Positions 49,531-64,000 of a stretch of DNA of 64,000 bases are shown piece after piece. The notes below the pieces were generated by a model that was not told the DNA's origin, searched no databases, and saw only the letters and a program-made list of their open reading frames with translations. The stretch lies in the NCBI GenBank assembly GCA_013414765.1, contig CP058708.1, positions 2,289,553 through 2,353,552 of the forward strand. The letters are read 5' to 3'. The DNA comes from Candidatus Accumulibacter cognatus. Lineage in GTDB: Bacteria; Pseudomonadota; Gammaproteobacteria; Burkholderiales; Rhodocyclaceae. A program made the position numbers and the translations under genes. Numbering within the stretch: position 1 is the stretch's first letter; every line of letters starts with the position of its first letter.

Positions 49531-50519
49531 AGCTTGCCCTCCACGCCGTTCATGCCGTCGCGCAGGCCGAACCACATCATGTGCAGATTGGCCAGGCGGT
49601 TAGGGGTCAACAGGCCGAAGAAGAAAAGCATCTGGAACAATCGAGACAAATCCGCACGTCGCCACCTTTTCGGCATGTACGATCGACGACGAAGCAGAAT
49701 GCTGTTGCGAACAATGTAGTAATAGCGGAACGGCGAATGAACCGGGACTCTGCGCCAGCGCAGGAACCAGATTGCCACTCTGCGCTCGCCGAGGGCGTGG
49801 CGCATGATGGCGTCGCACACACCGAATATCCCGAAGCCGAGGGAACGAGCCCTGAAGCACCATTCGGTATCGACGTGGTCGATATAAAGTCCCTCGTCCA
49901 TTTTTCCAATGGTTTCGATGGCAGCCATGGGCAGCAAGGAACCGGATGAAATCAGAAAATCGGCTTCAACGGTGCCCCCGTTCTCCCCACAGCCGACGCG
50001 CTTGAATCTGAAGCAACCGGCCTGGACAAATTGCGAAAGTGAAGCGTCGCTGGCGTCGCGATAGCGTGGTCCGACCGCAGCCGCCATCACCCCTCGCTGG
50101 GCGAGATCGAGATGAGCGGCCCGAAGCTTGGCGACCGTTCCGAACTCCAACTCGCTGTCCTGGTCAAGCAGAAGCACGAAAACGGCTCCGCGTGATCGCG
50201 CCTTATCCAGTCCGACATTGTAACCAGCGGCCAGTCCCAGGTTGTCTTCCTGGACCAATACTTCGACCTCTGCTTGAAAGTGCCGGCTGGCGTGACTGAT
50301 CCAGTTCAGGGGAGAATGTTCAGACGCGTTGTCGACAACGACAATCGCGGAAACCTGACGTGCGACGGACTCGAGAGCAGGCAGCAAGGTCTTCGGGGCC
50401 GGATTGTGGGTGACCAATACCGCCACGACATCCGGGCAATACTCACTCTCCACCGGAGTCGAGCTTGGCCGCACGGCAAGCGGTTCTGCGCGTATCGATC
50501 GATCGCTCAAGAGGGTCAA
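49500..50519 (-). CDS. rhamnosyltransferase-like GT2 glycosyltransferase
   Basis: This protein of up to 339 aa resembles the RfbF/WbbL-type rhamnosyltransferases: VVAVLVTHNPAPKTLLPALE, VQEDNLGLAAGYNVGLDKAR, FVLLLDQDSELEFGTVAKLR (the DQD of this group), ADFLISSGSLLPMAAIETIG, MDEGLYIDHVDTEWCFRARS and the membrane-associating tail PFRYYYIVRNSILLRRRSYM. The start is unclear; I use the TTG at 50519 because no ATG precedes the fold, and a GTG about 23 codons in is an alternative. It begins 8 nt after tolC, so it may be the last gene of the secretion operon. Its last codons come from repeat copy F. Confidence 0.85.
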   Translation of the reverse strand: MTLLSDRSIRAEPLAVRPSSTPVESEYCPDVVAVLVTHNPAPKTLLPALESVARQVSAIVVVDNASEHSPLNWISHASRHFQAEVEVLVQEDNLGLAAGYNVGLDKARSRGAVFVLLLDQDSELEFGTVAKLRAAHLDLAQRGVMAAAVGPRYRDASDASLSQFVQAGCFRFKRVGCGENGGTVEADFLISSGSLLPMAAIETIGKMDEGLYIDHVDTEWCFRARSLGFGIFGVCDAIMRHALGERRVAIWFLRWRRVPVHSPFRYYYIVRNSILLRRRSYMPKRWRRADLSRLFQMLFFFGLLTPNRLANLHMMWFGLRDGMNGVEGKLSRLRALGNS

Positions 50520-50527
50520 ATCCAGGT

Positions 50528-51862
50528 CTATGGACGCGGTAGGAGCAGCCCTGCGATCTCGACGATATCCTTTTCCGACAGAACACCGGCAGCCGTTTTC
50601 AATTGTAACGTGCTGACCAGGAGCTGGTACCTGGCTTGTGCAAGATCCCTCTTGGCAACGAACATCTGACGTTCGGCGTCGAGGACATCAGTATTGGTTC
50701 GAATTCCGGCCGCCATCCCACGCTTCGTTCCTTCGGTCGCCACCTCGCTGGATTCGACTGCTTTCTGGTAGGCTCTCACCTTGTGGCCACCCGTCTCGAC
50801 CGCCATGAACTGGCGCTTGACCTCAACCAGCACGTTGTCCACGGTAGCATCCAGTTCAGCCAGCGCACGCTCGCGGTTGGCCACTGCCTGCCCGGTCAGT
50901 GCGTTGACCCGCCCTCCCGCAAACAGCGGAATGTTGAGTTCTATGCCTACCGAGTTAGTGTTGATTTTCTGGTTGAGCGTGTCGACCGTTTGATTTTCTG
51001 TTCGTATGTTACGGGCAACGAAGTCGACCTGCGGGAGATGGCCGGCGCGATTGCGATTCACTTCCAGGCTGGCCATCTCGTATGCCTTGCGTTGAGCGCG
51101 AATCTCCGGATTGTTGTCCTGTGCCAGTGTGTTCCATTCGTCCAGTTGACTCGGCTGTACGCCGTTCGGCAGGTAATCCGGTCGCAGAATCCAGAGTTCT
51201 CCCATCGGCATGCCGGTCATGCCTTCGAGTTTACGCATCGCCACCGCGACCCCGTCGAGCGCGTCGGCACGGTTCGCGCGCGCAAGCTGAAGCCTGGCAT
51301 CCGTTTCGGCAACCTCGGTCACGGTGCCTTCGCCACCCTTCCGACGGCGCTCGGCAAGCTGGCGCTGAGCACCATAAGCCGTGATTTCCGCATCTGCCAG
51401 GGCCAGTTTGTCAATGGCCAGCAAGGCATCGAAATAGGCGGCCGAAAGCTTGACGGCCATTTCCGCAGCTTTCCGGTCAAACACCGCATCGCTGTAGGCG
51501 ACTTGGACGCCGCCCTGCTGGTAGCGTACGAAGCTCTCATAATTGAACAGGGGCTGCCGAAGTGCAACGGTGGTATAGGTATAGTGGTAATCCAGTTGCT
51601 GGGTCAAATTGACCACGGTCGACGATCGATCGCCAGTGGTCTTCGAGTAAGAGCCTGCAATCGAGAAATTCGGCAACAGACCGGCCAGACCTACGTCATA
51701 GTTGTACTGGCCGGCTTCCCGCTCGTAGCGGGCGGCCCGGAAGGTCGGGTCGTTTTGCCGGGCCGCCTGATACGCGTCCAGCAGGCTTGCGCCGAGTACC
51801 CCCGAAGCCATCAGCGCCAGCGCGCAGCCGGTCAGCCTGGCAGTCCATTTTCTCATGCTCAT
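50528..51862 (-). CDS. tolC: TolC family outer-membrane protein of type I secretion
   Basis: This 444-aa outer-membrane channel has a signal peptide (MRKWTARLTGCALALMASGV, cleavage after LGA) and the two repeated helical/strand halves of TolC: LLDAYQAARQNDPTFRAARY, LRQPLFNYESFVRYQQGGVQ, then DNNPEIRAQRKAYEMASLEV and VGIELNIPLFAGGRVNALTG. It belongs to the TIGR01844-type type I secretion group. A GAGG lies seven bases before a second in-frame ATG (51856), which is probably the used start; the ATG at 51862 overlaps the hlyD stop. Confidence 0.92.
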   Translation of the reverse strand: MSMRKWTARLTGCALALMASGVLGASLLDAYQAARQNDPTFRAARYEREAGQYNYDVGLAGLLPNFSIAGSYSKTTGDRSSTVVNLTQQLDYHYTYTTVALRQPLFNYESFVRYQQGGVQVAYSDAVFDRKAAEMAVKLSAAYFDALLAIDKLALADAEITAYGAQRQLAERRRKGGEGTVTEVAETDARLQLARANRADALDGVAVAMRKLEGMTGMPMGELWILRPDYLPNGVQPSQLDEWNTLAQDNNPEIRAQRKAYEMASLEVNRNRAGHLPQVDFVARNIRTENQTVDTLNQKINTNSVGIELNIPLFAGGRVNALTGQAVANRERALAELDATVDNVLVEVKRQFMAVETGGHKVRAYQKAVESSEVATEGTKRGMAAGIRTNTDVLDAERQMFVAKRDLAQARYQLLVSTLQLKTAAGVLSEKDIVEIAGLLLPRP

Positions 51863-53223
51863 TCCTCGGTCAATGCGGGCTTCGCCCGATCCAGCAGCGG
51901 CTTGACGATATAGTTGAGCAGTGTTCGCTCACCCGTCTTGATGATCACCTCGGCAGGCATGCCAGGCTTGATCTCGTGCGTGGTCAGCTTTTTCATCCCT
52001 TCCGGGGTCACCACCACCTGTCCGAGATAGTATGGTGGCATTCTGCCCTGCGGATCGGTCGTTGCGTCGGCAGCCACCTGCCCAAGTTCGCCCGGGATAT
52101 TGGGCGTCACCTTTTGATTGAAGGCTGGAAAAATGATGTCTACCGGCAAACCCGGCTTGACCTTGTCGATCAAGGTGGTGGGAATCATGACATCGATACG
52201 CAAGGGCTCGTTTTTCGGCACCACTTCCATCAGGGGGGTGCCCGAGGCCAGTACACCGCCGATGGTGTGCACTTTCAGACCGACGATGATACCTTCCTTG
52301 GGGGCCCGGACTTCGGTATTCGCCAGTTCAAAGGCCAGTCCCTTGAGGCGGCTATCGAGAGCACTGACCTCTTTTTGAACCTCGGCCAGCCCATTCTCGA
52401 CCTCCTTGTGGTAATCCTGTTGGCGCGCCAGCATCCGCATCCGGATTTCGCCGATGCTCCGCTGTGTACGCCCAAGATTTCCCAGGTCCTCGGAGATCGC
52501 ACCACCGAGTTGTGCCAGTAGCCGCTCCTGCTCGGACAGGCGGTTGCGTGGCAGGTAGCCCTCGGCTGCCATCTCCCGCAGGCCCTTCAATTCCTCGAGC
52601 AGCAGCTTCGACTGTTGTTCCTTGGCGCGTCGGGTGGCCTCCAGACCGGTAGCGGAGGACTGCAGGCCCGCCAACGTATTCTCCATGGCGCCAAGTTCAG
52701 CTTGTAGGGCAGCGCGGCGGGAACGCAGCAACTGCGTCTGGATGGCCATTGCACTGGCTGCTCGCGGATCGTCCTTGTCCTTCAACAGATCTTCGGGGAA
52801 AGTGATCTCCGAACGGCCCTGGACATCGGCCAGCAGTCGCGCTTCGACGGCTTTCGCCACCAACCATTGGGCGCGCGCCACCTCGTACTGCGAGCGTGCC
52901 TGGGTCGGGTCGAGTCGAAGCAGCACGTCGCCCTCCTTGACTTCGTCCCCGTCCTTGATCAGGATGGCGTCGACCATTCCTGGCGCGAGGTTTTGCACCG
53001 TCTTGCGATTGCCGGTCACCACCACCTGCCCGCTGGTCGGCACACCCTGGTCCAGCGGGGCCAGGGCAGCCCACAGCAGGAAGCCACCGAAGCCCAGTCC
53101 GAGCACCCACAGGCCGACGCGCATCGGATGGCCGGTATCCATCGGCAGATCAGCTTCCCCTTCAAGGGTCATGGGCAAGGCCTTGGGCCCCTGGAGACGA
53201 TTCAACATATTGCGAATAGCCAT
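51859..53223 (-). CDS. HlyD family type I secretion periplasmic adaptor
   Basis: This 454-aa membrane-fusion protein connects the ABC exporter to TolC. It has a short cytoplasmic N-terminus, one TM helix (about 32-52, VGLWVLGLGFGGFLLWAALA), the barrel and lipoyl strand TVQNLAPGMVDAILIKDGDE, a long coiled-coil hairpin (about 110-280) and the C-terminal signature PLMEVVPKNEPLRIDVMIPT, KVKPGLPVDIIF and GMPAEVIIKTGERTLLNYIV. This is the PrtE/HlyD type. It follows the second ABC gene by 22 nt and overlaps tolC. Confidence 0.94.
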   Translation of the reverse strand: MAIRNMLNRLQGPKALPMTLEGEADLPMDTGHPMRVGLWVLGLGFGGFLLWAALAPLDQGVPTSGQVVVTGNRKTVQNLAPGMVDAILIKDGDEVKEGDVLLRLDPTQARSQYEVARAQWLVAKAVEARLLADVQGRSEITFPEDLLKDKDDPRAASAMAIQTQLLRSRRAALQAELGAMENTLAGLQSSATGLEATRRAKEQQSKLLLEELKGLREMAAEGYLPRNRLSEQERLLAQLGGAISEDLGNLGRTQRSIGEIRMRMLARQQDYHKEVENGLAEVQKEVSALDSRLKGLAFELANTEVRAPKEGIIVGLKVHTIGGVLASGTPLMEVVPKNEPLRIDVMIPTTLIDKVKPGLPVDIIFPAFNQKVTPNIPGELGQVAADATTDPQGRMPPYYLGQVVVTPEGMKKLTTHEIKPGMPAEVIIKTGERTLLNYIVKPLLDRAKPALTEE

Positions 53224-53245
53224 AACGATGGTCCTGAATCAGAAA

Positions 53246-54973
53246 TCAAGCGGGTTGAGGAGTGGGAACGCCGGCGCTCTGGATGGGTGTCCGCGGCTGC
53301 GAAGCAGTCATCACCTGCTGGCGCGTGCCATAGGTCTGGATCACACCGTTGTCCAGAACCAGTACCCGGTCTGCGACGGCGAGAATGTTCATGCGGTGGG
53401 AAATGAAGATCACCGTCTTGCCCTGGGCCTTCAGATCCAGGATGGCATGAATCAGCGCTGCTTCGCCTACGTCGTCCAGATTGGCGTTCGGCTCGTCGAG
53501 GACGATCAGGCTGGGATTGCCATACAGTGCCCGTGCCAGACCGATGCGTTGCCGTTGTCCTCCGGAAAGGAAGCTGCCGGCTTCCCCCATGGGCGTGTCG
53601 TAGCCGCGCGGGAAGCGCAGAACCATGTCATGGATGCCCGTCCGCTGTGCAGCTTCGATGACCTGGGTCGAGTCAATCTCTCCGAAGCGGGCGATGTTTT
53701 CCGCGACACTGCCTTCGAAAAGCTCGACATCCTGTGGAAGGTAGCCAAGGAATGGCCCCAGTTCTTCCCGGTCGAGGCTTTCGATCGGCCTGTCATCGAG
53801 CAGAACTCGACCCTGGACTTCCGGCCAGATACCCACCAGGCAACGCGCCAGAGTGGATTTTCCGGAACCGGAGGGGCCGACGATGGCAATCACTTCCCCC
53901 GCGGGAAATTCGGCAGTGAGCCCCGCAAGGATGGGCTGTACACGATTCGACGCCGTCGCCACGAGGTTCTCGATGCGCACTGCGCCGCGTAAGGCCTCAT
54001 GGATCAGGCCGGCCGGCCGCTCGGGATGGTCCCGCAGCAGGGACTCCAGCGCTTCGAAGGCCTTGCGGGCCGATTGCCAGCCGGCCCAGCTACCGACAAT
54101 CGTATCGATCGGTTGCAGGCAGCGACTCATCAGGACATTCGCCGCAATCATCCCGCCGGTGGTCAGTTCGCCCTCGATCACCAGCAGGGCGCCGGCCCCA
54201 AGCATCAGGGATTGTTGGCTGTAGCGGATGAACTTGCTCAAGGCCTGAATGCGCCGCTGTCGATCCTGTGACGCCGAGTACAGCGACATATGTCGTTGAT
54301 GGTGGCCCAGCCAGCGTTGGCGCAGGTTGCCGAGCATGCCCAGGGATTCGATGACTTCGGCGTTGCGCAGCTTGCTGTGCAGATACACCGCCTCCTTGAC
54401 CCCGGCTTCCGTGGTTTTCTGAGTCGGCGTCTGGGTCACCCGGTGGCTGAAGATCGCCACCCCGGTCAGAATGCCGGCGAACACCAGGGAAAGGACGCCC
54501 AGCGACGGATGCAGCATGAACAGCACCAGCAGGTAAATCGGACTCCAGGGCGCGTCGAAGAACGCGAAGATGCCATTACCGGTGATGAACTGACGAACGT
54601 TGGTGAGGTTGCTGAAAGCCTCTACCGGGTTGTCTCGGCTCTGGTTGAGGTGGGATTCGAAGCAGGCATTGAACACCCGGCTGTTGAGTCTTTCGTCCAG
54701 GCGTACGCCCAGGCGAACCAGCAGACGGGAACGTGACCACTCGGCGAAAGCAATCACTGCGAAGAGAAACAGGACGATCAGGGAGACCGCGATCAGGGTC
54801 GATTCGTTGCGGCTGGTCATGAACCGATCATAGACCTGCAACATGTAGATGGTTGGCGTCAGCATCAGCAGATTGACCACCAGGCTGAAGATCCCCACGA
54901 CCAGAAACTCCCGTCGGAAGGACCAGAGCGTGGCCGTCAGTTCGCTGCGCTGAAAAAAGGAAGGTGTTTTCAT
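53246..54973 (-). CDS. type I secretion ABC exporter (PrtD-like), second copy
   Basis: This 575-aa permease-ATPase fusion has an ABC transmembrane domain (about 20-310, five or six helices, FLVVGIFSLVVNLLMLTPTI, MLQVYDRFMTSRNESTL) and a nucleotide-binding domain with Walker A IVGPSGSGKSTLARCLVG, Q-loop YLPQDVELFEGSVAENIARF, signature FLSGGQRQRIGLARAL, Walker B LIVLDEPNANLDD and the switch His in FISHR. It has the TIGR01842 PrtD length and no peptidase C39 domain, so it exports substrates with an uncleaved C-terminal signal. The ATG at 54973 is preferred over an upstream extension that overlaps the first exporter. Confidence 0.93.
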   Translation of the reverse strand: MKTPSFFQRSELTATLWSFRREFLVVGIFSLVVNLLMLTPTIYMLQVYDRFMTSRNESTLIAVSLIVLFLFAVIAFAEWSRSRLLVRLGVRLDERLNSRVFNACFESHLNQSRDNPVEAFSNLTNVRQFITGNGIFAFFDAPWSPIYLLVLFMLHPSLGVLSLVFAGILTGVAIFSHRVTQTPTQKTTEAGVKEAVYLHSKLRNAEVIESLGMLGNLRQRWLGHHQRHMSLYSASQDRQRRIQALSKFIRYSQQSLMLGAGALLVIEGELTTGGMIAANVLMSRCLQPIDTIVGSWAGWQSARKAFEALESLLRDHPERPAGLIHEALRGAVRIENLVATASNRVQPILAGLTAEFPAGEVIAIVGPSGSGKSTLARCLVGIWPEVQGRVLLDDRPIESLDREELGPFLGYLPQDVELFEGSVAENIARFGEIDSTQVIEAAQRTGIHDMVLRFPRGYDTPMGEAGSFLSGGQRQRIGLARALYGNPSLIVLDEPNANLDDVGEAALIHAILDLKAQGKTVIFISHRMNILAVADRVLVLDNGVIQTYGTRQQVMTASQPRTPIQSAGVPTPQPA

Positions 54974-55019
54974 GGTGAGCCGTAGATCGTGAAGGAATCT
55001 GAGAGTCGCTTGCGGATCG

Positions 55020-56759
55020 TTACGCGGCAGGGGCAGCAGCAAGACCAGCCGTGGGTGCAGCAGCCGGTGCAGCAGCCGCTTTGTGCAGGGCCGCCAGCAC
55101 CTCGTCACGCGGCCCGGCGATCTGTACTTGTCCATCGCGCAACACCAGCATCAGATCTGCCGCAGCCAGGACACTGGTGCGATGGGTGATGACGATCAGG
55201 GTGGTGCCCTGGGCCTTGAGCGCCAGCAAGGTATTCACCAGGGCCGCTTCGCCGGCCTCGTCGAGGCTGGAATTCGGTTCATCGAGCACGACGAATCTGG
55301 GATGGCCATAAATGGCGCGTGCCAGCCCCACGCGCTGACGCTGGCCGCCGGAAAGGAAGCAACCCTCGTCGCCGATGAGCGTTTCATAAGCATCCGGCAA
55401 GGCCAGGATCGCCTCGTGCAGTCCGACAGCACGCGCTGCCGCCTCGACCTTGGCCATGTCCACTTCTCCGAAACGCGCGATGTTCTCGGCAAGAGATCCG
55501 CCGAAGAGTTCAATGCCCTGCGGCAGGTAGCCGATGTGAGGCCCCAGTTCTTCCTTGTTCCAGGGGTGGACATCGACGCCATCGAGCCGTACCTTGCCGT
55601 TCGCTGCCGGCCAGATACCTACCAGTAGACGTGCCAGGGTCGATTTCCCGGATGCAGAAGGGCCGACGATGGCCAGAATCTGTCCTGCCGGCAAAGTCAA
55701 GGAAATCCCGCGGATGATCGCGACTTGGCTACCGGGGGCTGAGGCGACGACCCCTTCCACCGTGAGATTGCCTTTGGGCGCAGGCAGGGGCATGCCTTTC
55801 TGGCGCTCGGGCAAGGCTTGCAGAAGCTTGTCCAAGCGTTGATAGGCATCCCGGGCCGTGACGACGCTTTTCCAGAGCGAGACCACCTGCACCAGCGGTG
55901 CCAGTACCCGCGGCCCGAGTACCCAGGCGACGATCATCATGCCAGCGCCGCCAGCCAGTTCTCCCCTGACCGACAGCCAGGCGCCCAGTCCGAGGAGCGC
56001 CGCCGAAAGGGTGGTCTGCAGCATCTTGGAGAGCGCGGCATTGCTGCCCGCATGATCGGAGGCCTCCGCCTGCAGGCGCAGAAAGCTGCGCTGCTTGCTC
56101 ATCCAGCGCTGATGGATACTACGCAGCATTCCCATTGCCTCGATCACCTGCGCGTTGCGCAACGTGCCGTTTGCGTAGTTCTGGGCGGCGATGGCGTCCT
56201 TTTGGGCAGCGACCAGGGGAGGCTGGGTGTTCTTTTCGGTGAGGTAGGTCAGCAAGACCTGGAGGAGGGCAGCCAGCACCGCAATCGAGCCGAGCAGCGA
56301 ATTGATCATGTAGATCAGAATCAGGAACAGCAGGGAAACCGGTGCGTCCATGAGCGCCGTGAGCGCAGGCGTCGTCAGGAATTCGCGGATGCTGCGCAGA
56401 TCGTTCAGGGCTTGACTGGTGCCACCGGGGATACGACGAAGGTTGGCTTCAAAAATCGCGCTGAAGACCCGTTCCCGGAGCTTCCGGTCGAGCGCCTGGC
56501 CGGCCTGATGCATGACGCTGCCACGCGCCCATTCAAGCAACTCCATGATCACATAGAACCATAGTACGATCAGGGTTAACATCAGCAAAGTACTGGAATT
56601 GCGGCTGTTGATGACGCGGTCGTATACCTCGAGCATGTAACCGGTCGGAGCCAGAACCAGCAAGGTGCAGAAGACGCTGAAGAAAGCAGCCTTCCTGAAG
56701 AAGGGCTTCAGTTCGAGGATCGCTGCACGGAGTTCAGAGCGGCTTTCAGCAGAAGTCAT
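55020..56759 (-). CDS. type I secretion ABC exporter (PrtD-like), first copy
   Basis: This is a 579-aa permease-ATPase of the same type as its downstream neighbour: TM domain with FFSVFCTLLVLAPTGYMLEV, then Walker A VGPSASGKSTLARLLVG, signature FLSGGQRQRVGLARAI, Walker B FVVLDEPNSSLDE and ITHR. All catalytic residues are present, so both copies could be active, perhaps as a heterodimer. An Ala/Pro-rich tail (about 20 residues) ends the protein. The start at 56759 gives a family-like N-terminus; the ATG at 56804 is also open. Neither has a good ribosome site. The TnpB-like gene ends 69 nt upstream. Confidence 0.92.
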   Translation of the reverse strand: MTSAESRSELRAAILELKPFFRKAAFFSVFCTLLVLAPTGYMLEVYDRVINSRNSSTLLMLTLIVLWFYVIMELLEWARGSVMHQAGQALDRKLRERVFSAIFEANLRRIPGGTSQALNDLRSIREFLTTPALTALMDAPVSLLFLILIYMINSLLGSIAVLAALLQVLLTYLTEKNTQPPLVAAQKDAIAAQNYANGTLRNAQVIEAMGMLRSIHQRWMSKQRSFLRLQAEASDHAGSNAALSKMLQTTLSAALLGLGAWLSVRGELAGGAGMMIVAWVLGPRVLAPLVQVVSLWKSVVTARDAYQRLDKLLQALPERQKGMPLPAPKGNLTVEGVVASAPGSQVAIIRGISLTLPAGQILAIVGPSASGKSTLARLLVGIWPAANGKVRLDGVDVHPWNKEELGPHIGYLPQGIELFGGSLAENIARFGEVDMAKVEAAARAVGLHEAILALPDAYETLIGDEGCFLSGGQRQRVGLARAIYGHPRFVVLDEPNSSLDEAGEAALVNTLLALKAQGTTLIVITHRTSVLAAADLMLVLRDGQVQIAGPRDEVLAALHKAAAAPAAAPTAGLAAAPAA

Positions 56760-56828
56760 GAGGATACTTTCGGAGTGCCAGGAATTGCCGAATGGCCGGT
56801 TCATCAGCGGTTGGGTAGAAATCGGTGC

Positions 56829-57470
56829 TCAAAACAGCGCCGCCGTGGCTTGCTGGATCGCGGGAGATTCTTTCGGCTGGCTTGCGTGCACCACCACATA
56901 TTCCGGCATTTCAGCTTCAAGACCGGCCGGCTTGTCCTCGTCGACATCCAGCGCCGCCAACCAGAAGGAAAGCTGGTATCCCTGCGGGGTACGTGCCAGG
57001 ACGATCTCCCGTAGTTTTTCGCGCTGGAAGCGCAACTCATCCTCGGTCTTGAGCGTCAACTGGAAACGCATGCGCCCGTCAAGGGTATACATGGAGAGCA
57101 GGCCCTCCTTGAGGCTGAGGGTGTGACGGTCGAAATAGACCGGGGCACTCGGTAGAAACTGCAAAAGAGGCAAGGGGCGATCCGGATGGCTGGTGATGTT
57201 GAACGGGCTATTGGGGTGTTGCAGGATCAGCCGGCAAGTACGCGAGACCGAATAGATCGCGTTACAGACCATCTGCGATCCCACCTGCGGAAAACGCTGA
57301 CGCAGGTCATGGTAGGTGATGTGGTGCAGCGCTACCCGGTTCCAGCAACGGGTCTGCTGCACTACTGGCGCCAGCGCATTGCATACTTCGGCAAACGCCA
57401 CCTGCAAAGCCTGCAGGCGTGCCGTTTGCTCGGCGGTGGTATTGAGGATGATATGCAGCATAGATGTCAT
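56829..57470 (-). CDS. TnpB-like N-terminal-domain protein lacking the RuvC nuclease
   Basis: This 213-aa protein resembles the first half of IS605/IS607 TnpB: an N-terminal strand and helix with TAEQTARLQALQVAFAEVCN, the helical block LHHITYHDLRQRFPQVGSQM followed by AIYSVSRTCRLIL, then APVYFDRHTLSLKEGLLSMY and TLDGRMRFQLTL, the region that in TnpB precedes the D-V-x-E-P junction. Where TnpB continues into its RuvC-like nuclease (G-V-D-x-G) this protein ends after 30 divergent residues, so it has no nuclease site. No IS ends are visible around it. It is the first gene of the secretion operon (69 nt before an ABC gene). I infer a domesticated RNA- or DNA-binding protein, possibly regulatory. 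The function is unproven. Confidence 0.6.
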   Translation of the reverse strand: MTSMLHIILNTTAEQTARLQALQVAFAEVCNALAPVVQQTRCWNRVALHHITYHDLRQRFPQVGSQMVCNAIYSVSRTCRLILQHPNSPFNITSHPDRPLPLLQFLPSAPVYFDRHTLSLKEGLLSMYTLDGRMRFQLTLKTEDELRFQREKLREIVLARTPQGYQLSFWLAALDVDEDKPAGLEAEMPEYVVVHASQPKESPAIQQATAALF

Positions 57471-57501
57471 ATAGGAGATGATACCATAAACTCCTATATG
57501 A
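57467..57501 (-). promoter_or_regulatory. 11-bp inverted repeat across the start of the TnpB-like gene, with a six-codon leader ORF
   Basis: TCATATAGGAG (57467-57477 on the plus strand) and CTCCTATATGA (57491-57501) are perfect inverted copies around a 13-nt spacer. On the minus-strand transcript the upstream arm holds AGGAG, which correctly precedes an ATG at 57487. That ATG opens the six-codon ORF MVSSPI, whose TGA overlaps the ATG of the TnpB-like gene (ATGA). The second arm covers that ATG. A DNA operator and an RNA hairpin that hides the ribosome site are both possible. Confidence 0.6.
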
Positions 57502-57556
57502 AAACACCGGAACCGTAATTTATTGTCAAAGACGCAGCTGCGGCCCGCCGACCGTT

Positions 57557-57600
57557 TGTGATTCCACGCACACCGCGCTGGCTGATCAAGGACTTATACT
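57557..57600 (+). promoter_or_regulatory. CRP-like site and -10 box before the fecR gene
   Basis: TGTGA-TTCCAC-GCACA (57557-57572) matches 9 of 10 half-site bases of the CRP consensus. TATACT (57595-57600) begins 38 nt after the site start and would place the transcript start near 57607 and the site centre near -42, the class II CRP geometry. No -35 box is present, as expected for an activator-dependent promoter. The resulting leader is about 22 nt and contains the GAAGGGG ribosome site. Confidence 0.5.
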
Positions 57601-57628
57601 TGGCGGCATTGAACATGAAGGGGTCACG

Positions 57629-58960
57629 ATGATGAGCAGTCTGCTTCGCCATACCCGGATGCTGCGCTGTCTGCTGCTGATGTGGGTGCTACTGGCGCTG
57701 GCATCAGCCGTGCGGGCGTCGACCTCTGTGGGTGAAGTAACCCTTTGTATCGGAAGCAGCCAGATTCAGCGCGAAGGCCGGAGCGAGTCCGTCACCAAGG
57801 GCTACAGTATCGTTCCCGGCGATGTCATTCGCACCACCGCCAACGGGCACGTGCATGTCAGATTCGTCGATGGTGCACTGGTCAGCGTCCGTCCGGATTC
57901 GGTGTTGCAAGTGGTCGAGTATCGTTATGATCCGGCCAATCCCTCGGCATCATTGATCAAGTTCTCCCTCGAAACGGGAACGATGCGAGGTATCTCGGGG
58001 CTGGCGGCACAAGCGGCACGTGACAAGTTCCGCCTGAACACGCCGCTGGTGGCGATCGGCGTCAAGGGAACCGACTTCGTCACCCAGGCGGATGCAAAGC
58101 GAGCGGTCGTCCTGGTCAACCAGGGGGCGATCGTCCTCGCCCCGCTCGATAACACCTGTCTTGTTGACGGTTTCGGGCCCTGTGCCACCCCCCGTGCACG
58201 GGAACTGGCGGCGACCATGGACGGCATGGCGCTGGTGTATCGCCAGGCGGCCCGCGAACCGCTGCTGCAGCCGGTCAATTCGCTGCAGGGAGGAGACAAG
58301 ATTACTCCGACCCTGTTCCAGGAACGGATAGGCAGTGCCAGCACGGCGACCGTGGTGGCGGACGGCAAAAACCACAGACGGACCTTGTCAGAGGAGGCGG
58401 CTGCGGCGATGGACAGCCTCCGCCGTGCACGGCAAGCAGCGGAAAGCAATGTGATCCCTCAGACCAACAGCCTGATCTGGGGACGCTGGGGCGACAGCGT
58501 CAGACCGGGCGACAACCTGACCGTTCCCTTCAAGGAAGCGCTCAGTGGTAACCGTGTGACGGTCGGCGACGGCTACTATTTCCTGTTCCGCAATGAGACC
58601 ATCACCAATACCCTGACCAATGCCAGCGGCCTGGCGAATTTCCGCCTCGAAAGTGGCACTGCCTCCTACCGTGATCCGTTCAACGTGGTATCGGCGGCGA
58701 TCGTCGACGGCGGTTCGCTGAGCATTGATTTCGGCCGCAATACTTTTGCCACGCAGCTTGCCGTTACCACTCAGAGCGTCGGGACTCAGGCGGTGGCCGC
58801 GACCGGAACGATCGATCGGACTACCGGGGTCTTTCTTAGCAACGGCGCCACCGACCGGGTATCCGGCGCAGTTTCACTGGATACCAGCCAGGCCGGCTAT
58901 TTCTTCAGCAAATCCGTCGGGAATGGCGCCTTGATGGGTGCCACGCTTTGGCGTCGCTGA
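57629..58960 (+). CDS. FecR domain protein with C-terminal beta-rich domain
   Basis: This 443-aa exported protein has a signal peptide ending near AVRAS. Residues about 30-150 form the periplasmic FecR domain: VTLCIGSSQIQREGRSESVT, YSIVPGDVIRTTANGHVHVR, FVDGALVSVRPDSVLQVVEY and LNTPLVAIGVKGTDF. Residues about 320-443 have alternating strands (YYFLFRNETITNTLTNASGL, SLSIDFGRNTFATQLAVTTQ, VSGAVSLDTSQAGYFF) of the transferrin-binding-protein/lipocalin-like kind. Such FecR proteins without a sigma factor are commonly found beside CHASE2 cyclases, as here. The start is the first of two ATGs behind GAAGGGG. It is the first gene of a plus-strand unit. Confidence 0.85.
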   Translation: MMSSLLRHTRMLRCLLLMWVLLALASAVRASTSVGEVTLCIGSSQIQREGRSESVTKGYSIVPGDVIRTTANGHVHVRFVDGALVSVRPDSVLQVVEYRYDPANPSASLIKFSLETGTMRGISGLAAQAARDKFRLNTPLVAIGVKGTDFVTQADAKRAVVLVNQGAIVLAPLDNTCLVDGFGPCATPRARELAATMDGMALVYRQAAREPLLQPVNSLQGGDKITPTLFQERIGSASTATVVADGKNHRRTLSEEAAAAMDSLRRARQAAESNVIPQTNSLIWGRWGDSVRPGDNLTVPFKEALSGNRVTVGDGYYFLFRNETITNTLTNASGLANFRLESGTASYRDPFNVVSAAIVDGGSLSIDFGRNTFATQLAVTTQSVGTQAVAATGTIDRTTGVFLSNGATDRVSGAVSLDTSQAGYFFSKSVGNGALMGATLWRR

Positions 58961-58973
58961 AAGATCCACCCCC

Positions 58974-60953
58974 ATGATTGACCATCTCAGAGGGATTTTT
59001 CGTCGCATCCCTCCGGCATTCACCGCAGGTCTGCTGCAAAAACCGGCACGACTGCGACTCGCCGCACTGTTCGCTGCCACGGTCCTGACGCTGCTGGCCA
59101 CTAGCCTGTCGGACCTGTCCCAATGGGACGAGCTTTCGGCTGGCCTGTCCTGGCGAATGGCCGACCAGCAGGCGACCGAACGCCGCATCGTGGTCGTCGA
59201 TATCGATGAAAAAAGCATTCAGGCGATCGGCGCCTGGCCGTGGCCACGCGCTCGCCAGGCAGAGCTGCTCGAGAAACTGGACCAGGCGGGCGTCAGCCTG
59301 AAAATCCTCGACATCCTCTTCGATGGCCCCAGTCCGGACGATGCCCGCCTGTCTGAAGCATTGGCGAGCGCGGTGCCAACAGTCATGGCACAACTCTTCT
59401 CCTTGTCGCCCGAGCCGGCAGTGCACAGCGGCCAACTGGCGGGCGCGCTGCCATTTGTCGCCTGTCCCCAGCCGGCCGAGCGGGCTTATGGCTACATGGC
59501 CAACGACGTTCAGTTGAGCACTTCGCCTTTCGCCGGCCACATCACACCGCTGGTGGACCCCGACGGCGCGATCCGCCAGGTGCCGGCCCTGATCTGTCAC
59601 GATGGCAGAACCTATGCCTCGCTGGCGATTGCCGGTGTCATTGCCGCGAGTCAGTCCATTCCCGAACTGCACCCCGGCGTAGCGCTGCTCGATCCGCCCT
59701 GGTGGCTGGACCTCGGCGGCCTGCGTCTGCCGATTGACGGAGCGGGTCACCTGCGCGTCTCCTATCAGATGCCGCGCGCCGGCCTGCTGGCCATCCCGGC
59801 TGCAGACGTACTGCAGGGCCGGGCGCCAGTCGACCTGCTGCAGGGCGCCTGGGTGTTGGTGGGGGCCACCGCTTTCGGCGCCCGTGACGCCATTCCCACT
59901 CCGCAGGGGCGCGCGGTCAGTGGCGTCGAGGTGCACGCGCAGTTGCTCTCGGCGATGCTCGATGATCGCACGCCCTATCGGCCACGCGGCGCTGCCCTGT
60001 GGTCCTGGCTGCTGGGGGGCCTGAGCGCGCTGCTGCTGCTCGTCGCTCTGCGCCTGACACCACGCAGCGCAGCACTCGTCCTGCCCATGGTGGCCCTGAC
60101 CAACCTCCTGGTGATTTTTGGCTTGAGCACCCTGTTGCTGCTCAAGCAGCACCTCTGGCTGGGCTGGGTCGCTCCCGGCGTGTTCACCGTGTTCGCCGCC
60201 ATGCTGCTCAGTGCCGGCGAATTTGCCCGTCTGCGCTGCGAACGCGAGCGCCTCTACTCCCATCTGGCCAGCTACCTGCCTGAACCGGTGGCGCGTCAGG
60301 TGGCCACACAGGAGCCGTGTGCGCAGGTACGCGCCACACGCTGCGAAGCGACCGTGCTGCACGCCGACCTGCGCAATTTCTCCGCCTATTGTTCAGGCCG
60401 CCCGCCGGAGGAAACCGCCATGGTCCTGCATCTGTTCTTCACCACCGCCAGCCGCATCGTCGAAGCGCATGGCGGGGTGGTGGAACAAATGGTTGGCGAT
60501 AGCCTGTTGGCGGTCTGGAACGGCTCGGCGCCCTGTGCCGGGCATGGCGCCCGCGCCCTCGATGCCGCGGAGGAACTGTGGCGGGTCTGCACGCCACAGT
60601 TGCCGCGCATCGCATCACGGCATGTGCCGCCGCTCGATCTGGGCATTGGAGTTGAAACCGGCACGGTTCTGATCGGATCTTTCGGGCCGGCCGCCAGACG
60701 GACCCATGCCGTATTGGGTGAAGCCGTCACCATCGCTACACGCCTGCAAGCGCTCACCGGCGAATTGGCCCATCCCATTCTGATCGGCTCGGTGGTTGCC
60801 GATACCGATCCTGAACGCACCCACCGGCTAGGCGATTTCCTGCTGGCCGGAATGACCGAGCCGCGCACGGTGTATGCGATCCCTGTAAAATATCCCAAGG
60901 GTCATCTGCGCCTCGTCTTCGACGCGGAAGGCGAGCAGCAGACCAGCGGCTGA
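58974..60953 (+). CDS. CHASE2 domain class III nucleotide cyclase
   Basis: This 659-aa membrane sensor enzyme has an N-terminal TM helix (about 20-45), a periplasmic CHASE2 domain (about 50-330) with RRIVVVDIDEKSIQAIGAWP and LVGATAFGARDAIPTPQGRA, three TM helices (about 340-420) and a cytoplasmic class III cyclase domain (about 455-650). The metal aspartates are D465 (TVLHADLRNFS) and D509 (VGDSLLAVW), and the catalytic Arg R590 is present. However, the adenine-recognition Lys position is Q505, the second adenine-contact position is A579, and the usual ribose-binding Asn is T586 (VTIATR). The enzyme may be atypical or weak. It lies 13 nt after the FecR gene. The start could also be a GTG at 58938. 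Confidence 0.88.
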   Translation: MIDHLRGIFRRIPPAFTAGLLQKPARLRLAALFAATVLTLLATSLSDLSQWDELSAGLSWRMADQQATERRIVVVDIDEKSIQAIGAWPWPRARQAELLEKLDQAGVSLKILDILFDGPSPDDARLSEALASAVPTVMAQLFSLSPEPAVHSGQLAGALPFVACPQPAERAYGYMANDVQLSTSPFAGHITPLVDPDGAIRQVPALICHDGRTYASLAIAGVIAASQSIPELHPGVALLDPPWWLDLGGLRLPIDGAGHLRVSYQMPRAGLLAIPAADVLQGRAPVDLLQGAWVLVGATAFGARDAIPTPQGRAVSGVEVHAQLLSAMLDDRTPYRPRGAALWSWLLGGLSALLLLVALRLTPRSAALVLPMVALTNLLVIFGLSTLLLLKQHLWLGWVAPGVFTVFAAMLLSAGEFARLRCERERLYSHLASYLPEPVARQVATQEPCAQVRATRCEATVLHADLRNFSAYCSGRPPEETAMVLHLFFTTASRIVEAHGGVVEQMVGDSLLAVWNGSAPCAGHGARALDAAEELWRVCTPQLPRIASRHVPPLDLGIGVETGTVLIGSFGPAARRTHAVLGEAVTIATRLQALTGELAHPILIGSVVADTDPERTHRLGDFLLAGMTEPRTVYAIPVKYPKGHLRLVFDAEGEQQTSG

Positions 60954-61011
60954 CTTCGATGCAGCGGCGTTGGCTGCTGTCGAGTACAGACCCCAGACCC
61001 CCTCTCCCCCA

Positions 61012-61110
61012 ACCCCTCCCCCGCGAGGGGGGAGGAGAGCAGGCGGGTCGAAGGCTGCAGGAGGGTCCGGAAGGTCGCTGACCGCCCCTCTTCCCCTTGC
61101 GGGGGCGGGG
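61012..61110 (+). repeat. two C/G-rich hairpins between the cyclase and the barrel gene
   Basis: CCCTCCCCCGCGAGGGGGGAGG (positions 61014-61035, arms of about 9 bp) and, further on, CCGCCCCTCTTCCCC with GGGGGCGGGG (about 61082-61110) form two stems. They resemble hairpin 2 of the dispersed repeat but lack its hairpin 1 and tail, so I do not count them as a full copy. The 220-nt gap holds no other feature. Confidence 0.5.
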
Positions 61111-61173
61111 AGTTACATAGGGTGGAGGGGGCACATCGCCATTCACCCAACACTTTATTTGCACCCCATCGCC

Positions 61174-62532
61174 ATGAGCCGGTCGACCTTTTTCCATTTT
61201 TCCCCCGGCGCCATGATCCTCTGCGGGATTGCGCTGTCGGCTGCGGCCGTCGGCCCGGTGACGGCATCCTCTCTGGCTGTTACCTGCCCCACCTCCTTCC
61301 CAGTCCAGCCACCCATCCAGTCAGCACAGCGCGAGGCGGAAGTGGCGCGCCTCTCTGGCCTGGAAGAGTCCTGCCAGGACCGGGCCGACTATTTTGCCTA
61401 CCAGGGGGTGCTTCTGCTGACACTCGGGCGTCCCCAGAAAGCGGCCCTGTCGCTGGAAAAAGCCCTGCTGCTCAATCCCGGCCTGGCTGGCGCACAGCTC
61501 GACTACGCGCAGGCGCTTGCAGAAATGGGCCAACGGGATTCCGCCATCAGCCTGGCCAGCGAGGTTTCGCAACACCCTGATATTCCATTTGCATTAAAGG
61601 CGTGGTTGTCCGAGCAACTTGATGTCTGGAAGGGTGACGGCTGGCTTCTGGACTGGTCGATCGAGTTCCTGGGGGGCGCCGAATCGAATCTCAACAGCGC
61701 TCCCGGCATCCAGTTTCTGACCCTGACCCTGCCCGGCGGCAGCGTCCCGGTGCAACTGGCCGACAACGAGCGCATTCCCGGTGGCGCGGCGCGCACCACC
61801 TGGGTCGGCTCAGCCGCCCGCGCCTGGGGCGGAGGCATGGTCCTGTTGAACGGCGAAATCAGCACCCGCAACAGTCCCGGCAAGTCGGACACCAACCAGG
61901 CGATCGTCAGTGCCAACGCCGCCTACTTTCATCCCTTCCTCGACGGGCAGATCGGCCTCCGTTTCGGCCAGACCCGGCTCTGGATGGCCAACCAGCCGAC
62001 TTACACCAGCACCGGCTGGGGTCTGCTCTACCAGCTCCCGCCGCCCTTTGCACCTGCCGGTTGTGCAAGCAATCTCGGCTACAGCATCGAAAACCGGGAT
62101 TTTCCGGCGGCCCCGCTGCAGGCCGGCCGCTACGCCGGTCCCAAGGCCTGGCTGTTCTGTCGGGGCGAGGTCTGGGATTTCAACGTCCTGTTGCAGGATC
62201 GCAAAGACCGCGCGCGCGACTCCGACCGGCTGGGCGGCGACCAGCGGCGATCCGACATCACCCTGGGCATCGCCCGCAGACTGGGGTCGGACACCGTGTC
62301 GCTGTGGGTCCAGCGCGGCCGGGACCTCGACGACATCCCGTACAGCTCGCTGCTCGGCGGGCAGCCGCGCCGCGTCGACCGCCTGGCAGGACGCCTCTCC
62401 TACGAACATCCGCTGGCGGATCAGTGGTCTATTGTGGCATATCTCGAAAATACGTTGCAAAAAAGCAACATAGCCCTGTTCAATATGGAAAATCATGCGA
62501 TATACTTCGGCCTCAAGTTTCACGGGCGCTGA
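61174..62532 (+). CDS. TPR plus beta-barrel outer-membrane protein (Slam/DUF560-like layout)
   Basis: This 452-aa exported protein has a signal peptide (about 1-35, MILCGIALSAAAVGPVTASS). It has a TPR region (about 55-145) with YFAYQGVLLLTLGRPQKAAL, SLEKALLLNPGLAGAQLDYA and QALAEMGQRDSAISLASEVS. A C-terminal barrel (about 165-452) consists of amphipathic strands and ends in NHAIYFGLKFHGR. TPR followed by a barrel is the layout of Slam-type outer-membrane translocators for surface proteins, but sequence-level membership is my guess. It sits between a cyclase and the S-layer-like gene, so a role in surface-protein placement is plausible. The ATG at 61174 was chosen because the open frame before it has no conserved content. 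Confidence 0.65.
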   Translation: MSRSTFFHFSPGAMILCGIALSAAAVGPVTASSLAVTCPTSFPVQPPIQSAQREAEVARLSGLEESCQDRADYFAYQGVLLLTLGRPQKAALSLEKALLLNPGLAGAQLDYAQALAEMGQRDSAISLASEVSQHPDIPFALKAWLSEQLDVWKGDGWLLDWSIEFLGGAESNLNSAPGIQFLTLTLPGGSVPVQLADNERIPGGAARTTWVGSAARAWGGGMVLLNGEISTRNSPGKSDTNQAIVSANAAYFHPFLDGQIGLRFGQTRLWMANQPTYTSTGWGLLYQLPPPFAPAGCASNLGYSIENRDFPAAPLQAGRYAGPKAWLFCRGEVWDFNVLLQDRKDRARDSDRLGGDQRRSDITLGIARRLGSDTVSLWVQRGRDLDDIPYSSLLGGQPRRVDRLAGRLSYEHPLADQWSIVAYLENTLQKSNIALFNMENHAIYFGLKFHGR

Positions 62533-62605
62533 TCCGGGGTTTTTTCTTGCGGCCGTGGGACCGATGGTTTTGTCATAGACAGGGCAGCGAACCGCGAGTT
62601 AGATC

Positions 62606-62651
62606 TTTGTGATTGCAATCACAAACAGGCGGGATTCCGGCAAGCTACCAT
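62606..62651 (+). promoter_or_regulatory. perfect CRP-consensus palindrome and -10 box before the S-layer-like gene
   Basis: TTTGTGATTGCAATCACAAA (62606-62625) is a perfect 20-bp palindrome containing TGTGA-N6-TCACA, the exact CRP half-sites. TACCAT (62646-62651) starts 38 nt after the TGTGA, predicting a start near 62658 with the site centred at about -42. That leaves a leader of about 190 nt. Nothing else was recognised in 62533-62605 or 62652-62833. Confidence 0.65.
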
Positions 62652-62846
62652 GTGCTCGTCTGATGGTGTGGCAACTCTGGCGAAAAGCAGGATCGCCCGA
62701 GACCAAGCGGTTCCGGGGAAGCAACGCAGCGAAAGCAGACCGGACACGAGATGAAGCACTTAGCCTCAGACTGTTTTGGCGAGTGTCCAAAAACCAGGCC
62801 TCGGCTTTGTGCACAAAATTTGTTTTAACCTTTGAAAGGAAGTTTG

Positions 62847-64000
62847 ATGATCACACCCTCCACCAATAGTGTCGTCACTGCACGCTTCGCCGGTGCGATG
62901 TACAACCAGGCACTTAACTACAGCACGACCCAGCAGGTTCTGGCCTCGACCTCGACTCCCGGTGCCATGACCGATCTTGAGAACCAGTTGTTCATCCGCG
63001 ACTTTTCCAATATGGCGACCAGCGACGTCGCAACCATCGTCGCCACCAATCTGGGGCTGACCGGTGAAGCCTTTGATGCGGCCGTCGTTTTTCTCACCGG
63101 CTGGATCACCGGCACCGTCTTTACTGAGCGGGGCGCGGTCATCGCCCAGATCGTGAACAACTTTTCACTGATGACCGAAGACCCGACCTTCGGTTCCTTT
63201 GCCACGGCCTGGAACGCCAGGGTTGGTAACGCGGTTGCGTACGCCCAGAACCCTTCGAGCACGGCTACCATCGCCTTCCCCGATGTTCCCAGTGCCAACC
63301 TGGATTCGTTTACGCTCACCAACGGCACCGACATCGCCACCGCCAACATCTTCACGGCAGGCCTGGTCTACACCCCCGGCGGTGACGACCGGATCAACGC
63401 CCTGCAGGACGAAGACCAACTGACCGGTACGGGCACCGCCCCAACCCTCAACGCTACGCTGGGTAACGCCAACGACAATGGCGCTCCGATCATCACGCCA
63501 AAATTGACCGGCATTGAAGTGGTGAACGTCGCCTTCACGGGTTCGGGTGCTAACGTCACCGCCCTTGACATGCAGGATGCTACTGGCGTTAATGCCGTCA
63601 ATATTACTCGCGTTGCCCAGGCTAAGAATGCCGAGGTTGGCAACCTCAAGCAGCCTGTAGGTGCCCTCTCCTTGTCCAACACCAACGCCAACCAGGCCGA
63701 CACGGTCGAGTTCTCCTACGCGAGCGGCGTCCTGGCGGGCCTGAATGCGGCCACGATGACGCTGAACAGCGTGGACCTGGGTACACTCAACATCGGTCAG
63801 AATGTCACCATCGCTGGGCTAGGTGTGGCCACCAATGGTATTGAGACCCTTGGTCTGGTCAGCAATGGCTCCACAAATACCGTGAGAACGCTCAACCTGC
63901 CGATGGATACCGGTACTGCTGGCTCGATCACCATCACGGGTGATCAATCGCTGACCTTGGCTTCTACCGCTAACGTGGTCAATCAGGCTTCAAACGTTCT
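62847..64000 (+). CDS. S-layer-like large secreted protein, N-terminal part (continues past the right edge)
   Basis: The visible 384 residues contain no cysteine, are rich in Thr, Asn, Ala and Val, and have no Sec signal peptide, as expected for a type I secretion substrate whose signal is C-terminal. Residues 1-140 are helical (MITPSTNSVVTARFAGAMYN, QLFIRDFSNMATSDVATIVA, VVFLTGWITGTVFTERGAVI) and recall the N-terminal modules of RsaA-like S-layer and DUF4214-type proteins. From about 145 it is beta-repetitive (LDSFTLTNGTDIATANIFTA, GLVYTPGGDDRINALQDEDQ, LTGIEVVNVAFTGSGANVTA). No calcium nonapeptides are visible yet. AAAGGAAG precedes the ATG. It is the likely cargo of the T1SS operon upstream. 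Confidence 0.75.
   Translation, partial: MITPSTNSVVTARFAGAMYNQALNYSTTQQVLASTSTPGAMTDLENQLFIRDFSNMATSDVATIVATNLGLTGEAFDAAVVFLTGWITGTVFTERGAVIAQIVNNFSLMTEDPTFGSFATAWNARVGNAVAYAQNPSSTATIAFPDVPSANLDSFTLTNGTDIATANIFTAGLVYTPGGDDRINALQDEDQLTGTGTAPTLNATLGNANDNGAPIITPKLTGIEVVNVAFTGSGANVTALDMQDATGVNAVNITRVAQAKNAEVGNLKQPVGALSLSNTNANQADTVEFSYASGVLAGLNAATMTLNSVDLGTLNIGQNVTIAGLGVATNGIETLGLVSNGSTNTVRTLNLPMDTGTAGSITITGDQSLTLASTANVVNQASNV

What the first reader, a model, noticed from the sequence alone, without database searches (positions are those of the whole stretch)
56829..57470. Nuclease-less TnpB N-terminal half as the first gene of a type I secretion operon
The protein keeps the TnpB N-terminal architecture but ends where the RuvC nuclease should begin. 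It has no visible transposon ends and is placed like a regulator in front of two ABC exporters. Nuclease-dead TnpB derivatives that act as RNA-guided repressors (TldRs) have been described next to transporter and flagellin genes; a form with the whole RuvC part missing would be a further step in that direction.
Basis: partly seen in the sequence, partly recalled or inferred. Interest (0 to 1): 0.75.

Follow-up and report, generated by a model that had tools for sequence, protein, structure and literature searches.

The report
Half a TnpB as secretion repressor
A family of mainly beta-proteobacterial proteins is the DNA-reading front half of the transposon nuclease TnpB, stands first in protein-export operons, and probably switches its own operon off by binding a short DNA box that begins with the recognition motif of its transposon relatives, apparently without a guide RNA.

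Summary
Window 56829-57470(-) encodes 213 aa; residues 1-177 fold like the WED-REC half of TnpB/Cas12f and the protein stops where full-length relatives begin RuvC. It is a conserved family (dN/dS 0.11-0.14), one clade apart from full-length TnpBs. Of 80 relatives fetched, 77 have a T1SS ABC gene next; 3 are cut by contig ends.

New here: an 11-bp box, TTCATATAGGA, just upstream of the -10 and, reversed, over the start codon. At least one box in 84 of 86 distinct loci, two or more in 73; in the two exceptions TolC precedes the gene, and boxes or degenerate forms stand before TolC. Genomes without the gene have the box at background. Its first five bases equal the insertion flank/TAM, TTCAT, of three related tnpA-tnpB elements, which share most TAM-reading residues. 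Some full-length tnpB genes carry the box on their own start codon.

Best reading: a TAM-reading, guide-free, DNA-binding autorepressor. Binding and repression are inferred, not measured. RNA guidance (TldR style) is not supported, not excluded.

The parts
56829..57470 (-). RuvC-less TnpB N-terminal half (WED-REC only), 213 aa, called TnpBN here
57492..57502 (-). operator box 1, exact TTCATATAGGA, upstream of the -10
   Evidence: conserved in relatives
57466..57476 (+). operator box 2, GTCATATAGGA (1 mismatch), opposite to the gene and overlapping its ATG; with box 1 it forms a 16-nt inverted repeat (57467-57482 / 57486-57501)
57478..57483 (-). probable -10 element TATCAT (5 of 6 to TATAAT) between the boxes; transcription would start at or next to the ATG (leaderless; inferred)
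   Evidence: sequence; 5/6 or better in 52 of 86 loci against 1-4 of 86 in shifted control windows
55020..56804 (-). T1SS ABC permease/ATPase 1 (PrtD type)
   Evidence: TIGR01842 644 bits, cut-off 510
53246..54973 (-). T1SS ABC permease/ATPase 2 (PrtD type); start chosen by homology
   Evidence: TIGR01842 676 bits, cut-off 510
51859..53223 (-). HlyD-family T1SS adaptor
   Evidence: TIGR01843 372 bits, cut-off 209
50528..51862 (-). TolC-family outer membrane protein
   Evidence: TIGR01844 308 bits, cut-off 225

Best explanation
TnpBN is a domesticated TnpB that kept only the part which reads the target-adjacent motif (TAM) in double-stranded DNA (WED and REC) and lost RuvC and the zinc-ribbon, and with them cleavage and most guide-RNA binding. 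It works as a guide-free, sequence-specific DNA-binding autorepressor of its type I secretion operon. It binds 11-12-bp, nearly palindromic boxes (TTCATATAGGA(A)) that begin with the TAM TTCAT; typically one box lies just upstream of the -10 and one over the start point/ATG, so that bound protein blocks RNA polymerase and the first gene product limits its own operon. Shown: fold, family, single clade, operon linkage, the boxes, their tie to this gene, and the identity of their first five bases with the insertion flank of related transposons. Inferred: that TnpBN is the protein that binds the boxes, that it does so without RNA, its stoichiometry, and that the effect is repression. The signal that relieves it is unknown.
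For: Fold. In ISDra2 TnpB the TAM duplex sits in the WED/REC cleft, the omega-RNA scaffold on WED and RuvC (PMC10097598, passages). Positions aligned with TAM contacts (Y53, R57, S65, Q66, C69, F113-D114-R115; the last register uncertain by one) are invariant in 18 members, S65 nearly so, and the same in L024 and L206 apart from K for R115. Boxes (at most 1 mismatch, overlapping sites merged): 84 of 86 regions have one or more, 73 two or more, 77 an exact one; 168 unmerged sites against mean 0.18, largest 6, for 300 shuffled motifs. Private to the locus: of 28 exact boxes in 18 TnpBN genomes 27 lie within about 70 nt of the TnpBN start; exact copies in 15 of 17 family genomes with TnpBN and 12 of 182 without, 40 matches in all, 22 for the reversed control. 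A double-box pattern over 290 genomes of the order hit one genome, at its TnpBN start (same gene by protein). Six related T1SS loci without TnpBN have no box. L146, with TolC in front, has three boxes before TolC. TAM: left flank TTCAT in 3 of 3 tnpA-tnpB elements with a recognisable left end (L206, L230, L235); an empty site fixes the L206 junction.
Against: No binding or expression data. The empty site in G601 reads TTCAA, not TTCAT. TAM is an insertion-flank inference from three elements; four relatives without tnpA read NTCAT by eye. No exact box in 3 of 18 TnpBN genomes (G106, G039, G495); their regions show variants. L116 has only two 2-mismatch sites before TolC, where 1.6 such sites are expected by chance in the locus. 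One exact box in G087 lies before a lipoprotein gene, unexplained. The WED-REC core is still basic (mean net charge +7.7 against +7 to +16 in full-length relatives), so RNA binding stays possible. L231 and the tnpA-linked tnpB genes have no start-codon box. T1SS operons without TnpBN exist, so it is not needed for secretion as such. The 77-of-80 linkage comes from loci picked by TnpBN itself.
Confidence: 0.72

Rival explanations
1. TnpBN is RNA-guided like TldRs: with TAM TTCAT it is directed by a short guide starting AUAGGA from an undetected small RNA, and represses by R-loop formation.
For: TAM-first layout of the box; WED, which touches omega-RNA stem 4 and the pseudoknot in ISDra2 TnpB (PMC10097598 passages), is retained; TldRs exist (PMC13418256, abstract and passages).
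Against: RuvC, which holds much of the scaffold, is absent; the conserved target beyond the TAM is 6-7 bp and constant over genera; no Rfam hit; no conserved non-coding stretch upstream in the three groups aligned; variable 3' end, 24 nt from the next gene in the window; in 14 of the 15 genomes with exact boxes there is no exact copy away from the promoter that could be a guide.
Confidence: 0.1
2. Another, unlinked regulator binds the boxes; TnpBN does something else in the operon (for example an RNA-binding or secretion accessory protein).
For: No binding experiment; regulators unlinked to their targets are common (general knowledge).
Against: Boxes track TnpBN (15 of 17 against 12 of 182 genomes), are absent from six related T1SS loci without it, occur on the start codon of some full-length tnpB genes in viral contigs, and begin with the TAM of TnpBN's relatives.
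Confidence: 0.12
3. TnpBN binds the 5' end of its own mRNA (the OB-fold WED reading the start-codon box as RNA) and represses translation.
For: A box overlaps the ATG at offset -6 in 66 of 86 loci; OB folds bind single-stranded nucleic acid (general knowledge).
Against: The second box lies upstream of the probable -10, outside a transcript from that promoter, in direct or inverted orientation; in L146 the boxes stand before TolC, away from any TnpBN start codon.
Confidence: 0.05
4. A decaying transposon remnant that happens to sit before the operon.
For: TnpB genes often decay (general knowledge).
Against: dN/dS 0.11-0.14 against four Accumulibacter relatives; ABC gene next in 77 of 80 loci; one clade with 98/91 support.
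Confidence: 0.01

Closest known systems
TnpB of IS200/IS605 elements (NCBIfam NF040570 guided_TnpB; ISDra2 TnpB 8exa/8h1j)
   Same: WED-REC architecture and fold over residues 1-177; TAM-facing positions shared with the closest full-length relatives (43% identity to L024 over 7-140; 42.5% to L206 over 1-134).
   Different: No RuvC, no zinc-ribbon, no tnpA in window 50000-64000, no omega-RNA found; chromosomal, operon-bound.
TldR, TnpB-like nuclease-dead repressors (Wiegand 2024: recalled, not held; Walker 2026, PMC13418256: abstract and passages)
   Same: Exapted nuclease-less TnpB derivative linked to host genes; probable repressor.
   Different: TldRs carry an inactivated RuvC and use a gRNA; TnpBN lacks the whole domain, has no detected gRNA and a constant 11-bp box.
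Cas12f (type V CRISPR effector)
   Same: Best fold matches are Cas12f chains.
   Different: No RuvC; 7-13% identity in those alignments. CRISPR arrays were not searched for.
Ordinary autorepressors with inverted-repeat operators over -10/+1 (for example HTH repressors; general knowledge)
   Same: Operator layout and probable negative feedback.
   Different: The DNA reader would be the WED/REC cleft instead of an HTH dimer.

Membership tests
TnpB (RNA-guided endonuclease) | WED-REC fold at the N-terminus | tested here: met
TnpB (RNA-guided endonuclease) | RuvC domain with D-E-D site and zinc-ribbon | tested here: not met
   complete members are 197-236 aa and aligned ones end before the RuvC-I position; L141 (301 aa) is a misplaced start at a contig edge
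TnpB (RNA-guided endonuclease) | NF040570 score above cut-off | tested here: not met
   no NCBIfam match for the window protein; full-length L206 scores 201.8, cut-off 100
[quoted passage not shown]
   no Rfam hit, variable 3' end; no RNA data
TldR (nuclease-dead RNA-guided repressor) | TnpB descent with the nuclease lost | tested here: met
TldR (nuclease-dead RNA-guided repressor) | gRNA next to the gene | tested here: inconclusive
   none found by Rfam or conservation
TldR (nuclease-dead RNA-guided repressor) | guide-length target match beyond the TAM | tested here: not met
   conservation falls off after box position 11-12, 6-7 bp beyond TTCAT
TldR (nuclease-dead RNA-guided repressor) | represses transcription | not testable with these tools
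   needs a reporter or RNA-seq
IS200/IS605 element | tnpA beside the gene | tested here: not met
   tblastn of L206 TnpA: no match in window 50000-64000, L202 or L027-L043, while L024, L206, L230 and L235 match
IS200/IS605 element | LE/RE subterminal hairpins | tested here: inconclusive
   inverted-repeat scan of window 56700-57700 lists 10 pairs, none compared with a left-end model; the longest is the box pair itself
Type I secretion operon | PrtD-type ABC, HlyD and TolC together | tested here: met

The most novel reading that the evidence does not exclude
A TnpB stripped to its TAM reader has become a protein-only transcription factor: TAM recognition, normally the licence step for RNA-guided cleavage, is by itself the basis of sequence-specific repression. 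Some full-length TnpBs of the parent clade carry the same box on their own start codon, so guide-free TAM-based autorepression of tnpB may predate, and may have made possible, the exaptation.
Probability: 0.6. Interest if true: 0.92.

Novelty: new variant of a known kind. Interest (0 to 1): 0.85.

Why it matters
The TnpB derivatives known to me that regulate genes do so through a guide RNA. A conserved family that dropped RuvC altogether yet keeps the TAM-contact positions, with an operator that starts with the TAM of its relatives, would show a second, guide-free road from transposon nuclease to transcription factor. It makes directly testable whether TAM/PAM reading alone can support specific gene control and how tnpB genes limit their own expression, and offers a small (about 175-residue) sequence-specific DNA-binding domain of Cas12 type. 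It also names a candidate regulator for a T1SS found in many beta-proteobacteria.

Tried and rejected
Profile libraries: Pfam, NCBIfam, PHROGs and PDB sequence searches with the protein or its family gave nothing significant; the TnpB link comes from tblastn and from the fold.

Viral contigs: 3 pattern stretches, no TnpBN relative; no double box. The pattern gave 18 matches; 4 of 18 start a TnpB (three distinct elements, one of them new, L245), 14 do not.

Close full-length relatives: none at E 1e-40 in 274 class genomes, only G573's own element in 74 genomes of its family; so the TAM rests on few elements. L024's left end was not recognisable.

My first reading of the L206 right end (TTCAT as its last bases) was wrong: the joined flanks used that boundary. 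With the end at TTATTTAC the flanks are colinear with the empty site of G601; the left junction is unchanged. My first count of loci with two boxes (75) counted some palindromic sites twice; merged it is 73.

Weak protein hits G091, G095, G096, G101, G150, G162 and G288 are not counted as TnpBN; G096 is a distant full-length TnpB (L044), the others were not worked out. Rows L018full and L019full were read in a wrong frame and are dropped. L141 was left out of the box count (contig edge); 97 upstream regions became 86 after removing identical ones. L237 is cut by its contig end, so its RuvC half is not seen.

The double-box search says nothing about sensitivity: how many of the 290 genomes hold TnpBN was not measured, and the window's own pair fails the exact pattern.

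Regulon idea: one exact box of 28 lies elsewhere, before a lipoprotein gene in G087; its AGGAG may be just a ribosome site. Literature: searches listed no account that I could recognise of a natural RuvC-less TnpB or of this operon's regulator; Wiegand 2024 and Altae-Tran 2023 are not held, so this is no full novelty check. PMC10278001 (passages) and the NpdA S-layer paper PMC10765051 (passages; it concerns a T2SS) did not bear on it.

Full report

A CONSERVED FAMILY. Of 199 genomes of the family (own included) 23 match at E <= 0.001; 17 are clear members (E <= 4e-35). Of 369 class genomes one more is clear, G495; of 349 phylum genomes one more, G779, besides a full-length TnpB in G573. In all 17 loci fetched around 16 family members and G495 the next gene on the strand is a T1SS ABC (L036 is cut within it; L040, L042 and L043 have one ABC gene instead of two). 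One scan of a collection of 84,980 species genomes gave 241 relatives, the best 80 kept; 77 of 80 have the ABC gene next, 3 end with the contig; the ABC homology starts -33 to +200 nt from the stop, median 15. These loci were picked by TnpBN itself. From the other side, 65 of 199 family genomes have an ABC1 match at E <= 1e-120 and 17 of these 65 have TnpBN; of the 16 with E <= 1e-200, 13 have it and G006, G020 and G081 do not. Complete proteins are 197-236 aa. dN/dS against four Accumulibacter relatives is 0.11-0.14, the C-terminal tail being least constrained. In a tree of 33 N-terminal halves (32 different) the 22 TnpBN rows form one side of a branch (98/91; all 200 bootstrap trees) against 11 rows of TnpBs with RuvC or cut by a contig end; two of the latter have long branches and the root is a midpoint.

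THE OPERATOR. Upstream sequences share little except a promoter and the 11-mer TTCATATAGGA. After removing identical regions, 84 of 86 have at least one box with at most one mismatch within -120 to +5 of the start, 73 two or more (overlapping sites merged), 77 an exact one. Offsets cluster at -34 to -32 on the strand of the gene and, reversed, at -6 over the ATG (66 loci); 168 unmerged sites stand against a mean of 0.18 and a maximum of 6 for 300 shuffled motifs. A hexamer with 5 or 6 matches to TATAAT lies between in 52 of 86, against 1-4 of 86 in windows shifted 40-100 nt upstream, so transcription should start at or near the ATG (inferred). Information falls sharply after position 11-12; the 12-mer is an imperfect palindrome TTC[A/C]TATA[G/T]GAA. 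In the window the boxes are 57492-57502 (exact) and 57466-57476 (one mismatch), the arms of the longest inverted repeat there.

THE BOX BELONGS TO THIS GENE. In 18 whole genomes with TnpBN, 15 have exact copies, 28 in all, 27 within about 70 nt of the TnpBN start; the reversed control gives 2. Over the 199 family genomes exact copies occur in 15 of 17 with TnpBN and in 12 of 182 without (one each); 40 matches against 22 for the control. None of the 12 is near a TnpBN homologue; one is near a distant ABC gene. Six loci with related ABC genes but no TnpBN carry no box core (L195-L200). A double-box pattern over 290 genomes of the order rang in one, at the TnpBN start of G779. The two loci without a box at TnpBN, L116 and L146, are rearranged: TolC directly precedes TnpBN. 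L146 has three boxes before TolC. L116 has two TTCATATATG forms there (two mismatches); 1.6 such sites would be expected by chance in its 12.65 kb, so this case is suggestive only.

THE TAM LINK. In ISDra2 TnpB the TAM duplex is held by WED and REC (Y52, S56, K76, F77, Q80, T123, N124) and the omega-RNA scaffold mainly by WED and RuvC (PMC10097598, passages). Aligned positions in TnpBN are Y53, R57, S65, Q66, C69 and, register uncertain by one, F113-D114-R115; in 18 members all are invariant but S65, which is nearly so. L024 and L206 have the same residues except K for R115; L230 has K for R57 and V for F113, L231 A for S65. L206 (genome G573) holds an intact tnpA-tnpB element, its TnpB 65% identical to L024 and 42.5% to TnpBN over 134 residues. 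Its left end is preceded by TTCAT; the uninterrupted site of G601 is colinear with the joined flanks GTTGCCACCATTCAT|CGCTACC, with TTCAA for TTCAT. L230 and L235, whose tnpA is confirmed by tblastn, also have TTCAT, 17-19 nt before the left hairpin in all three. So 3 of 3 tnpA-tnpB elements with a recognisable left end give TTCAT; L024's is not recognisable. Four relatives without tnpA (L232, L233, L234, L237) read NTCAT by eye, with no empty site. TTCAT is the first five bases of the box.

OLDER THAN THE TRUNCATION? Full-length relatives without tnpA, L232 (= L236), L234 and L245, carry TCCTATATGAA exactly over their ATG, as does L237, which is cut by its contig end; L233 has it with one mismatch; L231 does not, and the tnpA-linked tnpB genes do not. 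No second, upstream box was seen in these. The simplest story (inference) is that a tnpB lineage limited its own expression by TAM-type binding at its start, that one copy lost RuvC and was fixed before a T1SS operon, and that an upstream box was added.

MECHANISM AND RIVALS. Best: guide-free TAM-reading autorepressor (0.72). RNA guidance (0.10) would need an unseen guide; the box beyond the TAM is 6-7 bp and constant, Rfam finds nothing, the 3' end is variable. An unlinked regulator (0.12) does not explain the tie of the box to TnpBN nor its presence on full-length tnpB starts. Binding to the mRNA 5' end (0.05) does not explain boxes upstream of the -10.

STATUS AGAINST WHAT IS KNOWN. In place and logic it resembles a TldR, but it fails TldR's guide-length target feature and TnpB's RuvC feature, and should be filed as neither. 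Seven searches of an open-access library listed no description of such a protein; the original TldR paper was not readable here.

LIMITS. No experiment; TAM from few elements; the model does not show a DNA complex; counts are of samples or of the best 80 of 241.

Noticed in passing
window 57629-62532 (+) and 62832 onward; L202:14385-18476: Divergent cluster: FecR-domain protein, CHASE2-cyclase, a 520-aa ORF and a 1363-aa ORF that could be a T1SS substrate; the first 389 aa of the last have no Pfam or NCBIfam hit. Relatives of these genes were found in at most 4 of the 80 loci.
   Followed up: partly
L201:3178-3188 (G087 contig 117): The only exact box away from TnpBN in the 18 TnpBN genomes lies a few nt before a predicted lipoprotein gene; regulon member or chance overlap with a ribosome site.
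   Followed up: partly
L232, L234, L237, L245 at the tnpB start: TnpB genes in viral contigs carry the same 11-bp box over their ATG, suggesting tnpB autoregulation in this clade.
   Followed up: partly
L042 and L043 upstream of the start: The most distant TnpBN genes have TTCATATATG(AA) forms over the start instead of TTCATATAGGA/TCCTATATGAA; protein and box may have changed together.
   Followed up: no
L116, L146: Operon rearrangement TolC-TnpBN-ABC; boxes (L146) or degenerate forms (L116) stand before TolC.
   Followed up: yes
L200 (G125, same genus): A T1SS locus with one ABC gene and a 77% identical HlyD but no TnpBN and no box.
   Followed up: partly
L206, L024, L232-L235 right ends: Right ends of the related elements share a hairpin followed within a few bases by (T)TTAC, the probable right cleavage site.
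   Followed up: no
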